Translations under genes and position numbers: made by a program
Shown: in pieces, positions 1 through 61,632 of the stretch
How positions within the stretch are numbered: position 1 is the first letter of the stretch
Layout: every line of letters begins with the position of its first letter
Origin: Cloeon dipterum
Lineage: Eukaryota > Arthropoda > Insecta > Ephemeroptera > Baetidae
DNA: 64,000 bases
Reading direction: 5' to 3'
Assembly: GCF_949628265.1 (NCBI RefSeq)
Contig: NC_088786.1
Coordinates: 30,029,681 to 30,093,680 of the forward strand
Notes under the pieces: model-generated
Database searches by the model: none
Told to the model about the DNA's origin: nothing
Seen by the model: only the letters and a program-made list of their open reading frames with translations

Positions 1-1215
1 ACGACACTTGATGTAGAGCCCGTAGAGCAAACACCAACCAAAACAACGCTTTTTTTTATCCAAAATCAGAAGGACGACCAGACTATAAAATTTTTATAAC
101 TGGATCGCTATTTGGTGACCTTAACTTCGTGTTCATTTATTATAGGGATATATTAATTTAGGATGGGGTTTATCAAACTTTAAATTAGTGCATTAGTGCC
201 ACCATAAAGACTGAGAGCCGAACAGAGCCAAATAAAGAAGAATTCTAGTGTCTTGAAAGAGGATTGCGATACGTTTTGATTTTCTATTTCCATGATACGT
301 TTCCTAGACAGAAAAACAAAGTCTTTAGATGTGGTGGCCCGATTTTTGTAGATTCTCTGCGTCTTAACAATGAGCAGCGTTTTTTTCGTCGACTGGCTAA
401 ATCTCTGAAGGCTTCTCCGCCACTGCTTGATTCGTGTGTCATTCATGGGTATTTTTTTTTTGTAAAAGTACGACTCCGTTCTGATTTTAAAACATGTTGA
501 TAAGAACATCAAAAAACATATTCCCTGAAAGTGTCAGCCAGATAGCTCATTTAGTTCTGCTGAAAACCGGTATAACCTGAAGAAAACTCATGTTTTGGAT
601 TTTTTATTCTCTCCTCTGTTATTCCAAATTGCAATATAAAGGTGATTTCTTCACTATCTGACCTAATTTGTGATGGGGAACAACTTTCCTTTGCAACAAA
701 TTTTTGTTCAGTTCATTAACTTTAGAATTAAAAATTAAATTAAATTTTTATCAAATTGGAACAAATTTTTCTGAAGTATATATCTATTAATATTTTATCA
801 GTGCAAATGAAACACGAATCGATTCCACTTTTCTTAACACCTACATATTTATTGCATTATACAGCAGTATGAAGAAAATTCTCCAGATCAATATTTCTTC
901 AGTATATTGTTTATACACTTAAAACGCCTATGTAAAGTTTATTCGAAGCAAAAACTAAAGTTTATCTATTGACACATTAAGTGGCAATTTGTTTTTCTTT
1001 ATTTATTTACAAATGAGACTAGATGAATTCTCATCCATTACTTTCGATCTATACACTAGACCACTTGTAAAGCTAAAACAACACGTGAATGTTGATATTC
1101 ACTTAATGATTTACACCGTTTATGATAATGCTTAAACGTATTTTGTTGAATATTCCGGATCAGAAAATGTTTAAAATAAAATAAAATTAAACCAATCATT
1201 AGCTGATTCATGAAA
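1..1215. other. AT-rich downstream flank of HLH3B, no convincing gene
   Basis: This stretch lies downstream of the minus-strand bHLH gene and is very AT-rich. It contains TTTATT motifs, which read AATAAA on the minus strand, around 848 and 1003-1015; these could serve as poly(A) signals for HLH3B. A minus-strand open frame of 110 codons at 180-512 has a basic, tryptophan-containing stretch faintly like the N-terminal helix-turn-helix of mariner-type transposases. It has no continuing frame, so I do not call it a gene. Confidence 0.5.
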
Positions 1216-4200
1216 TTAGTGTTTTTCTATTTTGAATCGTTTTGCAGCTGGCCCATTTTCAGCGCTGCTTCTTTCCTCCGCGGGCTCCTGCTTGATTCTG
1301 CCAGTCGAGCTGATGGAATTTTGCAAATTGCCGTTTCTGTCATAGCTGCCAAGATTTTCTTGCGAATCCTGCCACTTCAGAACGTCGTCTGTGGAAATTG
1401 ATGCAAGAAAGTGAAACTTATTCGCTTCAAAAAGACAATTCGTTACCCAAAAGGCGGATGTATTTGATGGCCATCCTCAAAATTTCGTTTTTACTCAGCT
1501 TCTTGTCAGGAGGGTGGGTGGGCACGAGCTTCCTCAGCTCAGCGTATGCGCTAGTCACGTTCTGCTGACGCCACCTCTCCCTGCTATTAGTGAAAATTTT
1601 GCGCACAAGCCTCGGTGGTCCTGTTCCTAATGGAATGGGCAAGCCGGAAGCTGCGTTAAAAAGATAATTTTTCATCAGTGGCCATGATCATTAAATATAA
1701 TATTAATGCAGGCTTTTAATGAAAATTTATCTAACGCAGCTTTGAAATCCGTGACGGAAAATACTCATAATGTTTAAAATTCTCTTTGATTTAAATTTTT
1801 TCAGAGAAATTTTTAGCACATATCATATATTGATCTTGTGATCCTGCGTTGAGCTCTGCATGTTGTCGACCAATGCAGTAGTGCATTGCGCGGGTACAAA
1901 TTTTCAACCCAAACCCGCACCGAACCCGCTTATTTCGTAACGCACCCAAACCACACCCATGTCTTTTTTCAAAATTTGAACCCGCACCAAACCGCACTAC
2001 GCCAACCTAGCGCCAACCCGCACCCGCAATCCGCCATATTGGATTTGCAAAATCAGGACCCGTACCCGCGGGTTTGGTGCGGGTTTTGCGGGTCAGTTTA
2101 TCTTTAAAATGTGTAGTAATGAAATCAAGACCACGGAAAATTAAATTTCAGATTTTGCCAAATTTTACGTTAAATTAAACACGGCTTGAAGGCAAGTAGA
2201 GGGGTCACTTTGGTGCAGGCAGAGGGGTCACTTTTTGGTGTATAGGGGTCACTTTTTGGAGTATAGGGGTCATTTTTTGGTGCAGTGGGGTCATTTTTTA
2301 GTGCAGAGAAGTCATTTTTTTGGTGCATAGGGGTCACTTTTTGGTGCAGAGGGGTCACTTTTTTCAGCATAGGGGTCACTTTTTTCAGCAAAATGACCCC
2401 TCCCTATGGAAAAAATGACCCTTCCCTATGGAAAAAAAGACCCCTCCCTATGGAAAAAATTGACCCCTCCCTATGGAAAAAATGACCCCTCCCTATGGAA
2501 AAAATGACCCCTCCCTATGGAAAAATTGACCCCTCCCTAGGGAAAAAAATGACCCCTCCCTAGGGAACAAAATGACCCCTCCCTAGGGAAAAAATTGACC
2601 CCTCCCTATGGAAAAAAATGACCCCTCCCTAGGGAAAAAAATGACCCCTACCTAGGGAAAAAATGACCCCTACCTACGGAAAAAATGACCCCTCCCTAGG
2701 GAAAAAATTGACCCCTCCCTATGGAAAAAAAATGACCCCTCCCTAGGGAAAAAATTGACCCCTCCCTAGGGAAAAAAATGACCCCTCCCTAGGGAAAAAA
2801 TGACCCCTCCCTATGGAAAAAAATGACCTCTACCTATGGAAAAAAATGACCCCTACCTAGGGAAAAAATGACCCCTACCTAGGGAAAAAATGACCCCTCC
2901 CTTTGGAAAAAATTGACCCCTCCCTATGGAAAAAAATGACCCCTCCCTAGGGAAAAAATTGACCCCTCCCTAGGGAAAAAATGACCCCTCCCTAGGGAAA
3001 AAATGACCCCTCCCTATGGAAAAAAATGACCCCTCCCTATGGAAAAAACTGACCCCTCCCTTTGGAAAAAACTGACCCCTCCCTATGGAAAAAACTGACC
3101 CCTCCCTTTGGAAAAAATTGACCCCTCCCTAGGGAAAAAAATGACCCCTCCCTAGGGTAAAAAATGACCCCTCCCTATGGAAAAAAATGACCCCTACCTA
3201 TGGAAAAAAATGACCCCTCCCTATGGAAAAAACTGACCCCTCCCTTTGGAAAAAATTGACCCCTCCCTAGGGAAAAAAATGACCCCTCCCTATGGAAAAA
3301 AATGACCCCTACCTATGGAAAAAAATGACCCCTACCTAGGGAAAAAATGACCCCTACCTAGGGAAAAAATGACCCCTCCCTAGGGAAAAAATGACCCCTC
3401 CCTAGGGAAAAAAATGACCCCTCCCTATGGAAAAAAATGACCCCTCCCTAGGGAAAAAAATGACCCCTCCCTAGGGAAAAAATGACCCCTCCCTATGGAA
3501 AAAAATGACCCCTCCCTAGGGAAAAAAATGTCATTTTTTGGTGCAGAGGGGTCATTTTTTTGTGTATAGGGGTCACTTTTTGGTGTATTGGGGTGGGGTC
3601 ATTTTTCGATGCAGAGGGGTCATTTTTCGATGCAGAGGGGTCATTTTTGGTTTATAGGGGTCATTTTTTGGTGCAGAGGGGTCATTTTTTGGTGTATAGG
3701 GGTCATTTTTTGGTACTAGCAGGAGGGGCCGTTTTTTTCTGTTTTTGGTGCTGGCAGGAGGGTCTGTTGTTGGTGCTATTAGAATTACAAAAAAGTTGCG
3801 GGTTTGCTGAGTCAACCCGCACTACGCCAACCCGCACCCGCAATCCGCCATATTGGATTTGCAAAATCTGGACCCGCACCCGCGGGTTTGGTGCGGGTTT
3901 TGCGGGTTCAACCTTCAAACCCGCGACCCGCGCAAAGCACTACAATGCAGAGCTTGGAAAATATCTTGTGTCACAAATCCCAACAGTCTAATAAATATTC
4001 GTCAAAATTAATCAAAGTTTGTCAAAGGAATAATCTGAATTGAAGTTAATTTTTGGTCGAAAAACAGTCTCAAATTCATAAACCTATATGGTTATAACTT
4101 TAAACTTTTAGTTCAAAGTGAAATAAGGGGTGACCCATTTCAATAGAGGTTAAACGGTAGAAAAATGGAAGTGCATAGCCTTTTTTGTGGTATGCGGATA

Positions 4201-4807
4201 TTATGAGTAAAGCGTTCCGAAGTATATCTTATATTGACATGGGGTGTTGTTTTAGTTACAACAGGAAGCCACACTTTCTAAAAAAAAATTGGAACGCCAA
4301 CTATAGTAAATTTAAAACTGGCTAAATTTTGTGCCCGCTAAATAATATTACATTTAAAAAGGCATTTATTAGACAAACACGAGGAAACAAAAGTCAAACT
4401 GACTCTAGTTTATTAATTTAAAAGAATAATGCAGGTTTGACTTATCACTAAAACTCAATAGAAAAAATTCTTGTTGTGCGTCTAAAAAAATAAGCAAACC
4501 AACCTCTGACGTTGGAGCCCGCCGCCGAGTTGGCACCGGGCGGGGTGTTGGAGGCGCGGGGGCTGCGTTTGCCGGACCGCCTCGAGCCGAGGCTGACGAG
4601 GTCGTCGTCCTCGTCACCCTCCTCTTCGAGGTCTTCATCCAGGTCTGAGAGGTCGCTGGACGAGCCGCCGATGGAGGAGGAGATGCCCGGCGACCAGCCG
4701 TTGAGTCCGGCGCGGCTGCAGCCGTTGGGCGATTGTTGCGGCTGCAGGCTTTGCTGAGGACAGTCGTCGGCCAGGGGCCTGCTGCTGCCCACCCTGTCCA
4801 ACACCAT
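1216..4807 (-). CDS. HLH3B: bHLH transcription factor of the TAL1/SCL/LYL1 (HLH3B) family
   Basis: This is a class II basic helix-loop-helix transcription factor that should act in the nucleus as a heterodimer with an E-protein (Daughterless) on E-boxes. Coding exons on the minus strand are 4504-4807, 1447-1650 and 1216-1388, giving 226 residues. The bHLH spans roughly residues 117-169, and [16 protein letters not shown] followed by [15 protein letters not shown] is the diagnostic TAL/LYL signature. After the bHLH a 58-nt intron leads to a tail beginning LDDVLKWQ, as in family members; reading through the donor would stop after a few residues. The N-terminal exon is GC-rich, serine-rich and acidic (an aspartate/glutamate run near residues 60-75). 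The start at 4807 is conservative: an in-frame, phase-compatible upstream exon exists at 5326-5391. Intron 1 (2.85 kb) contains a hAT-like element. Family assignment is firm; the orthologue name is inferred. Confidence 0.9.
1994..2093 (+). repeat. Left subterminal repeat of the hAT-like element
   Basis: A GC-rich block that includes CCGCCATATTGGATTTGCA and a self-complementary CCCGCGGG core. It recurs almost unchanged at 3820-3907 in the same orientation; the left copy has about 12 extra bases near its start. Multiple short CCCGCACC/GCGGGT motifs surround it. In hAT elements such subterminal motifs typically bind transposase; that role is inferred here. Confidence 0.8.
2196..2392 (+). repeat. 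Left arm of the minisatellite (GGGGTCA-T-rich units)
   Basis: About nine units of roughly 21-22 bp, each built around GGGGTCACTTTTTGGTG followed by CAGA, TATA or similar. Its consensus is the reverse complement of the core array's AAAAATGACCCC motif, so the array changes strand at about 2393. Apparent open frames across it are repeat translations, not genes. Confidence 0.9.
2393..3531 (+). repeat. Core minisatellite array, about 22-bp units
   Basis: Roughly 50 tandem copies of a unit of about 21-23 bp, consensus AAAAATGACCCCTCCCTAKGG with a variable A-tract. Units fall into variants ending CTATGG, CTAGGG or CTTTGG, with occasional CTACC units, and these variants are interspersed in runs that look like higher-order duplications (for example around 2800-2900 and 3300-3400). 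The A-tract length varies by one or two bases. It lies entirely inside the hAT-like element. Confidence 0.93.
3532..3717 (+). repeat. Right arm of the minisatellite (GGGGTCATTTTT units)
   Basis: About eight units of roughly 21-22 bp carrying GGGGTCATTTTTTGGTG and GGGGTCATTTTTCGATG, the same orientation as the left arm and opposite to the core. The whole array is therefore arm, inverted core, arm, allowing long intramolecular pairing between arms and core. Confidence 0.9.
3820..3907 (+). repeat. Right subterminal repeat of the hAT-like element
   Basis: Near-identical partner of the block at 1994-2093 in direct orientation, beginning CACTACGCCAACCC and ending GGTGCGGGTTTTGCGGGT. It lies just inside the right terminal inverted repeat. 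Confidence 0.8.
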
Positions 4808-5325
4808 TCTGACTGAGCGCCGAGAGCTGCTGATAAAGAGTCGCGTTAAAACTGAGCTTATCAAAACCGCTTTTCCTTGCTCACTTTCCTGTCGATCGGC
4901 GACAGGAAACACACGCGTTTACATTTTGTTTGCGCGCCGCCCCGATCTACACACACTCAAAGCACTAATAATGCTTGCTGCTTCTCCACAGCATTGTTTT
5001 TCGCCTTGGCTGATTGGCAGCCCGCTTATTTCACTTAAGCTGATTTGGGTTGAGGTTGAACACTTGCGCTACCGTTATGGTGATATTTTCCTGATAAGTC
5101 GTACGCTGTACTGCGCATAAAATTAAATTTCCTGCATGTGTGCTACAGGTTTCAAAAAATAAAATTCTTTTGTGTTTTAGAAAATGTTCCCACCGATTCG
5201 AATTATTCCTATTAGAATTCTAGCACCAATTCAACTGGAAATTTCGTAACAATCATTTGAAGAGCAAAATGAGAAGCCACGCAGAATTTGTAGTTTTTAA
5301 AAATTAATAATATTTAATTACTTAC

Positions 5326-61557: not shown

Positions 61558-61632
<75 letters not shown>

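What the first reader, a model, noticed from the sequence alone, without database searches (positions are those of the whole stretch)
2196..3717. Strand-switching minisatellite: arm, inverted core, arm
The tandem units read GGGGTCA(C/T)TTTTT in the two flanking arms but AAAAATGACCCC in the core of about 50 units, so the same 12-base motif switches strand at about 2393 and about 3531. Arms and core can pair over long distances. Arms also carry a spacer (GGTGCAGA type) distinct from the core spacer (TCCCTAGGG/TCCCTATGG), so they are diverged families, not a simple inversion. Satellite expansion inside a non-autonomous transposon suggests a route by which transposons seed minisatellites.
Basis: seen in the sequence. 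Interest (0 to 1): 0.7.

Follow-up and report, generated by a model that had tools for sequence, protein, structure and literature searches.

The report
Jumping DNA with strand-flipped minisatellite core
A small, gene-less jumping DNA element carries a run of short repeats whose middle block reads in the opposite direction; the flip is shared by sister copies elsewhere in the genome, while the order of repeats in the middle block differs from copy to copy.

Summary
Window 1879-3942 is a non-autonomous hAT-type transposon (ends TAGTGCATTGCG...CGCAAAGCACTA, 8-bp target duplication CAATGCAG) filled with a minisatellite: nine 21-bp units, then 50 inverted 22-23-bp units, then nine 21-bp units; switches at 2389/2390 and 3530/3531. 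It is very unlikely to be a local assembly error: the left switch recurs in 8 element copies on five contigs (6 exact, 2 with 1-2 mismatches), seven of them with both ends and different target duplications. So one flip was apparently spread by transposition. The core unit exists un-flipped elsewhere (64:0 in L093, 10:0 in L096), so the flipped block probably came from such an array, by inverted insertion or by inversion in place; I cannot separate the two. Further small switches arose independently (L075; a 111-bp inverted insert in L069). The most striking result was not in the finding: copies with 0-5 substitutions per flank share almost no core unit order, although left-arm order is largely conserved. 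Minisatellites inside MITEs are known; this is a new variant with an inherited strand flip and a hypervariable core.

The parts
1871..1878 (.). left target-site duplication CAATGCAG
1879..3942 (+). whole non-autonomous hAT-type element, 2064 bp; the only stop-to-stop frame of 90 aa or more listed inside it is a 160-aa frame that runs through the right arm (3509-3991)
1879..2200 (+). left end and subterminal region (322 bp), 0-4 substitutions per pair among the seven flipped copies that have it
2201..2389 (+). left arm, 9 units of about 21 bp, GGGGTCAYTTTTTGGTGCAKA sense
2389..2390 (.). left strand switch GGGGTCACTTTTTTCAGC|AAAATGACCCC, shared by 8 element copies (6 exact, 2 with 1-2 mismatches)
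2390..3530 (-). core, 50 units of mostly 22-23 bp, TGACCCCTCCCTAKGGAAAAAA sense (reverse of the arms)
3530..3531 (.). right strand switch, type A, AAAAAATG|TCATTTTTT
3531..3719 (+). right arm, 9 units of about 21 bp
3720..3790 (+). degenerate older units by eye (GGAGGGGCCG..., GGAGGGTCTG...)
   Evidence: the right flank scores 35 with the 25-bp unit (0 of 300 shuffles as high) and 28 with the 26-bp unit (0 of 300, but one of 188 other window pieces scores 30)
3791..3942 (+). right subterminal region and right end CCCGCGCAAAGCACTA
3943..3950 (.). right target-site duplication CAATGCAG

Best explanation
A hAT-type MITE picked up or grew a minisatellite of 21-bp units. Once, before the present copies spread, a block of related 23-bp units became fixed in its middle in the reverse sense. 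The element then moved with the flipped array and now sits with it at seven target sites, this one included, plus an eighth copy (L078) that has lost its left end. Since then the ends and outer arm units have changed little while the core has been rewritten by many block duplications and deletions (unequal exchange, slippage, or repair of breaks or excision gaps), and a few further local strand switches arose, most simply by fold-back or template switching during DNA synthesis. Shown: element anatomy, shared left switch, separate insertions, core/arm contrast in conservation, extra switches in L075 and L069. Inferred: the donor of the core and whether it was inserted or turned in place, the order of events, and the repair pathway.
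For: Left switch in 8 copies, 6 exact and 2 with 1-2 mismatches; different 8-bp duplications in the seven copies with both ends, 6 perfect and L074 7 of 8; left flanks 0-4 substitutions of about 321 and right flanks 0-5 of 209-231 between copies; core length 30-74 units and longest shared run of identical successive units 1-5 among the eight; core order z between -1.9 and 3.0 against 40 shuffles, at or above 2 in 5 of 28 pairs, whereas left-arm order is at or above 2 in 15 of 21 pairs (range 1.4-4.9) with 7 of 7 units shared by the window, L071, L072 and L073; simulation: such loss of order needs roughly 20-40 or more block events per lineage. Same-sense core relatives: L093 64:0 and L096 10:0, against 0-1: 25-55 in the flipped copies. 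Extra switches: L075 20-bp stem with 4-nt loop; L069 insert entered by a 21-bp stem with 7-nt loop.
Against: The right switch differs between copies (type A in the window, L070, L071, L072; type B in L069, L074, L078; arm lost in L073), so a single event for the right side is only inferred, by eye, from the alignable outer right arms. Six of 21 left-arm pairs, all between the window-like copies and L069 or L074, have z below 2, and arms and cores differ in length and in number of unit variants, so the z values are not strictly comparable. Cores could instead have been mixed between copies by conversion, or flanks homogenised. All copies come from one assembly whose reads I cannot see. The palindromes at the switches are weak evidence: random arm-core joins give stems of 7 or more in 238 of 483 cases.
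Confidence: 0.75

Rival explanations
1. In-place inversion (a sub-model left open by the best explanation): the ancestor had arm-core-arm all in one sense, as L093 has, and the core was turned round by two breaks.
For: L093, an element with matching ends, has arm, core and arm in one sense. Turning the core of a type B copy back would leave near-regular unit spacing at both joins (by eye, about 27 and 18 bases against 21-26).
Against: The cores of L093 and L096 lie beside 26-bp units; no 26-bp unit occurs in the array of any of the 8 flipped copies (up to 1 mismatch). The spacing test is weak, since chance joins would pass it fairly often.
Confidence: 0.35
2. Inverted triplication: replication copied the arm forward, backward and forward again, and the backward copy later drifted into the core unit.
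For: The forward/reverse/forward layout is that of small inverted triplications (PMC13334657, abstract read); L069 contains a small inverted duplication.
Against: The same core unit with the same spacer variants exists in the arm sense elsewhere (L093, L096) and shares TCCC with the 26-bp unit, not with the arm unit; so the core probably did not arise by drift inside this element.
Confidence: 0.1
3. Assembly artefact.
For: Tandem inverted arrays are hard to assemble; the reads are not available to me.
Against: Nine occurrences of the 29-base left junction, control 0, on five contigs, in copies with different target sites and different core lengths.
Confidence: 0.03
4. Functional array: the unit is kept because it binds a host or transposase protein, or because arm-core hairpin transcripts feed small-RNA silencing.
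For: GGGGTCA resembles a nuclear-receptor half-site (recalled, not tested); arm-core pairing potential is large.
Against: The unit shows no clear likeness to the element's left subterminal region (best case 8 of 300 shuffles as high, for the 21-bp unit on one strand, out of eight left-flank comparisons); a 245-bp and 1.7-1.9-kb relatives have perfect target duplications without any such array in 7 of 9 fetched regions.
Confidence: 0.1

Closest known systems
BrickBuilt, a MITE with a 23-nt minisatellite, Porphyromonas gingivalis (PMC4596501; abstract and outline seen)
   Same: minisatellite of 23-nt units inside a MITE, several copies in a genome
   Different: bacterial; its abstract mentions no reversal inside the array; sequences not compared
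Tetris foldback transposon of Drosophila virilis (PMC4079207; passages seen)
   Same: DNA transposon without conserved ORFs, internal tandem repeats, 8-9-bp target duplications in complete copies, repeats also found as longer satellite-like arrays
   Different: its 220-bp repeats lie inside the two TIRs and so face each other by construction; here 21-23-bp units form arm-core-arm between short TIRs
[quoted passage not shown] only its title seen, in the reference list of PMC6947457, and cited there for minisatellites embedded in mobile elements)
   Same: transposons spread minisatellites
   Different: paper not read; details not compared
Small inverted triplications, FEN1/rad27 (PMC13334657; abstract and outline seen)
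   Same: duplicate/inverted/duplicate layout, on average 148/160/148 bp
   Different: there the inverted block belongs to the triplicated sequence; here it is a different unit family
Inversions inside satellite arrays of primates (PMC11062924, passages seen; PMC4022460, passages seen: 1,738 HSat2,3 reads matching both strands set aside as possible inversion breakpoints)
   Same: strand reversal inside a tandem array
   Different: large centromeric or heterochromatic arrays, not carried by a MITE

Membership tests
hAT superfamily, non-autonomous (MITE) | 8-bp target-site duplication | tested here: met
   perfect in 9 of 11 array-bearing elements with both ends (window, L069-L073, L075-L077); L074 7 of 8; L093 not clean
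hAT superfamily, non-autonomous (MITE) | short TIRs beginning C/T-A-A/G-N-G (recalled consensus) | tested here: met
   TAGTGCATTGCGCGGG at the left and TAGTGCTTTGCGCGGG (read inward) at the right; 66 left-end and 59 right-end pattern matches in the genome, backwards controls 0 and 1
hAT superfamily, non-autonomous (MITE) | mobilised by a hAT transposase with the same ends | tested here: inconclusive
hAT superfamily, Ac-like branch | target consensus nTnnnnAn (recalled) | tested here: inconclusive
   T at position 2 / A at 7 in 17 of 32 after symmetrising 16 duplications; no formal test against local composition
Minisatellite | tandem units of roughly 7-100 bp, variable copy number | tested here: met
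   21-23-bp units; core 30-74 units between copies
Foldback transposon | long TIRs made of tandem repeats facing each other | tested here: not met
   both arms face the same way; only the core is reversed
Small inverted triplication | reversed block is a copy of the flanking blocks | tested here: not met
   core spacer TCCCTAKGG against arm spacer GGTGCAKA; core relatives exist in the arm sense. The 111-bp insert in L069 is an inverted copy of a left-junction region, but not next to its source

The most novel reading that the evidence does not exclude
Transposition itself rewrites the core: each time the element leaves, the gap is refilled by copying inward from both flanks, so ends and outer arms are copied faithfully while the two new strands meet out of register in the repeat core, scrambling its order and, when a strand anneals to the wrong sense, flipping blocks. 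The core would then be a record of transposition history, and strand-switched minisatellites its signature.
Probability: 0.2. Interest if true: 0.65.

Novelty: new variant of a known kind. Interest (0 to 1): 0.45.

Why it matters
Transposon-borne minisatellites are known, but here one genome offers eight copies with nearly identical flanks, one inherited strand flip, unflipped relatives and rewritten cores. That gives a clock (flank substitutions) next to a fast recorder (unit order), so one can ask how quickly a tandem array turns over, whether transposition drives it, and how arrays change strand. The arm-core inverted layout also predicts hairpin DNA and hairpin transcripts, both testable.

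Tried and rejected
Origin of the unit from the element's own left subterminal region: by eye TTTGGTGC...GGGTCA looked alike, but the local alignment of the 26-bp unit scores 16, reached by 61 of 300 two-base-block shuffles of the flank. All eight left-flank comparisons (four units, two strands) are reached by 8 to 199 of 300 shuffles; the lowest, 8 of 300, is the 21-bp unit on the minus strand. Not supported.

Palindromes at the switches as a signature of fold-back: rejected as general evidence, because joining an arm array to a reversed core array at any phase gives a stem of 7 or more in 238 of 483 joins, and of 7 or more with a loop of 7 or less in 101. Only L075 and the entry into the L069 insert (20- and 21-bp stems) go clearly beyond the motif; the exit from the L069 insert has no such stem (3 bp).

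Drift of the core from arm units after an inverted triplication: disfavoured, see rivals.

Autonomous partner: 13 PF05699 places, none at the ends compared. Of the eight 1.7-1.9-kb relatives fetched (L079-L081, L083-L087) I translated four (L079, L080, L084, L085); the longest stop-to-stop stretch is 114 aa. L080 is a long imperfect palindrome by eye.

A count of mine that was too loose: the motif GGGAGGGGTCA, which I first used for same-sense core units (77:0 in L093, 16:0 in L096, 6:0 in L076), also matches 26-bp units and even L095 (28:0). The stricter core pattern gives 64:0 in L093, 10:0 in L096 and 0:0 in L076 and L095; the report uses these.

Organism: I guessed a mayfly from five large contigs and 190 Mb and searched for it and for the contig lengths; both returned nothing.

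Chance singletons: four lone AAAAATGACCCC places (L005-L008) have no array around them.

Literature: ten paper searches used. No listed title or abstract start describes a strand-switched minisatellite in a MITE; some searches were the most direct (13, 11 and 0 papers). I did not read the listed papers in full, and most subscription journals are not held.

Full report
WHAT IS THERE. Window 1879-3942 is a 2064-bp DNA element with terminal inverted repeats (TAGTGCATTGCGCGGG at the left, CCCGCGCAAAGCACTA at the right) between two copies of CAATGCAG. Its filler is a minisatellite: left arm 2201-2389 (9 units of about 21 bp), core 2390-3530 (50 units of mostly 22-23 bp in the opposite sense), right arm 3531-3719 (9 units). 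The two strand switches are at 2389/2390 and 3530/3531. The element lies between an exon with a helix-loop-helix domain (PF00010, E 3e-19, minus strand, 1451-1654) and a plausible upstream exon near 4505-4810 on the same strand (by eye), so it probably sits in an intron.

IT IS A FAMILY. Searching the window's own 190-Mb genome with the left and right ends gave 42 and 40 matches; the tool scored only 40 of 273 and 40 of 116 candidates. The left-end pattern occurs 66 times and the right-end one 59 times at up to 2 and 1 mismatches. I fetched 20 regions in one call and four more later. Eight copies, the window's included, have arm and reversed core: window, L069, L070, L071, L072, L073, L074, L078. 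L073 has lost all but one right-arm unit and L078 has lost its left end. The 29-base left junction occurs at 9 places: 7 exact (6 copies plus an extra inverted copy inside L069), one with 1 mismatch (L074) and one with 2 (L078); the backwards control gives 0. The right junction comes as type A (window, L070, L071, L072), type B (L069, L074, L078) and type C (L073, arm deleted). The outer right-arm units can be lined up between A and B by eye, so A can be read as B with the inner half of the arm removed; this is inference.

SEPARATE INSERTIONS. The seven flipped copies with both ends have different flanking 8-mers, perfect in six and 7 of 8 in L074. L075, L076 and L077, small relatives with 7, 9 and 3 arm-sense units (L075 has one more in the other sense), are perfect too; L093 is not clean. 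So 9 of 11 array-bearing elements with both ends have a perfect 8-bp duplication. Hence the flipped array was moved as part of the element.

UNFLIPPED RELATIVES. L093 (C1:34250400-34253400) has matching ends, and its arms (26-bp units such as GGGGTCATTTTTTTGGTGCAACGGGA) and core (23-bp units) all run in one sense: 64 strict core matches in the arm sense and 0 in the other, 11 strict 26-bp matches and 0. L096 gives 10 and 0 core matches and holds two 26-bp variants in the same sense. L076 has 26-bp units only (5 and 0). The eight flipped copies have 25-55 strict core matches in the reversed sense and none in the arm sense, except one inside the L069 insert, and no 26-bp spacer in either sense at up to 1 mismatch. 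The core unit shares TCCC with the 26-bp unit but not with the 21-bp arm unit, so core and arms look like two lines of one minisatellite family. I favour the joining of a core-type array in reverse into a 21-bp array (about 0.5) over inversion in place (about 0.35).

FURTHER SWITCHES. L075 ends its forward array in GGGGTCACTTTTTAGTGACCCC..., a 20-bp perfect stem with a 4-nt loop. L069 carries, inside its core, 111 bp that are an inverted copy of a left-junction region: 106 of 110 aligned bases match its own and 107 of 108 match L070's, each with 2 gaps, so the source may have been another copy or an earlier state of its own. The insert is entered through a 21-bp stem with a 7-nt loop; its exit shows no such stem. 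Both events look like template switching or fold-back and are not shared with the other copies I read. The shorter stems at the shared junctions (4, 8 and 7 bp) are not diagnostic: 238 of 483 random joins give 7 or more.

FAST CORE, SLOW ENDS. Between the copies the left flank (about 321 bp, seven copies; L078 lacks it) differs by 0-4 substitutions and the right flank (209-231 bp, eight copies) by 0-5; window and L071 differ by 0 of 553. Yet cores have 30-74 units (L069 counted with its insert), each copy has 2-11 private unit variants, and no pair of the eight shares more than 5 identical successive units. Common-subsequence scores are close to those for shuffled unit order: z from -1.9 to 3.0 in 28 pairs, at or above 2 in 5. 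As a contrast, left-arm order is better kept: z 1.4-4.9 in 21 pairs, at or above 2 in 15; the window, L071, L072 and L073 share 7 of 7 units; the six lower pairs join L071, L072 and L073 with L069 and L074, whose left arms are longer (one double unit of L074 was not split). Arms and cores differ in length and variety, so I calibrated the core test by simulation: block duplications and deletions of 1-10 units reach such low order only after about 20-40 or more events per lineage (median z 4.7 and 5.9 at 20 events, 2.4 and 0.9 at 40, for two starting cores, 12 runs each). Repeated lags (13, 29 and 16 units in L072, 19 in L071) suggest that blocks are duplicated. A conservative edge and a mobile centre is what ordinary unequal exchange in arrays would give; repair of excision gaps from both flanks inward would give the same, and is my bold reading.

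PAIRING. Folded as one strand with DNA parameters, the window's arms plus core give -301.6 kcal/mol; with the core reversed in the script -142.2; the core alone gives -109.4, or -134.2 reversed; the first 1520 bases of the unflipped L093 array give -247.1. So the flip allows much arm-core pairing, but an unflipped array of another unit mix also folds well. I have no evidence that pairing has a function.

WHAT IT IS NOT. It is not a foldback element, since both arms face the same way. It is not a plain small inverted triplication, since core and arms are different units. I found no hAT transposase at these ends. Relatives with the same ends carry no such array: a 245-bp form (L082) and eight 1.7-1.9-kb forms, one of which (L080) is a long imperfect palindrome by eye.

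KNOWN KIND. Minisatellites inside MITEs (PMC4596501, abstract and outline), transposon repeats as satellite seeds (PMC4079207, passages; review PMC6947457, passages), inversions inside satellite arrays (PMC11062924 and PMC4022460, passages) and inverted triplications from replication errors (PMC13334657, abstract and outline) are in print. I did not see the combination in the listings of my ten searches (named in Tried and rejected). Verdict: new variant of a known kind.

LIMITS.

Noticed in passing
L079-L081 and L083-L087 (for example L080:597-2396): Eight relatives with the same ends carry a 1.7-1.9-kb filler instead of the array; L080's filler is a long imperfect palindrome by eye. So the same ends go with at least three kinds of filler (none, palindrome, minisatellite).
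   Followed up: partly
L082:558-802: 245-bp version of the element with no filler and a perfect 8-bp duplication ACGGTGAA.
   Followed up: partly
L094:about 1240-1600 and L095:about 1-1290 (reverse complement, as printed), L096:1-440, L088:541-680 (as printed): Arrays of arm-type, 26-bp-type or core-type units with no element end in the DNA read; L095 mixes GGTGCATA with TGTGGGGA-type spacers and runs off the fetched piece.
   Followed up: partly
window 2201-3719: A/T tracts recur every 21 bp (two helical turns) in the arms and 22-23 bp in the core, which might curve the DNA; GGGGTCA resembles a nuclear-receptor half-site (recalled).
   Followed up: no
window 1451-1654 (minus): Exon with a helix-loop-helix domain (PF00010); looks TAL1-like by eye.
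   Followed up: partly
window 9385-49517: ORF pieces that by eye resemble an ABC transporter, NUDT9, FICD, a kinesin-13 and a RecA-like XRCC3; names not tested.
   Followed up: no
window 61561-61628: Pure GA dinucleotide run, 34 copies.
   Followed up: no
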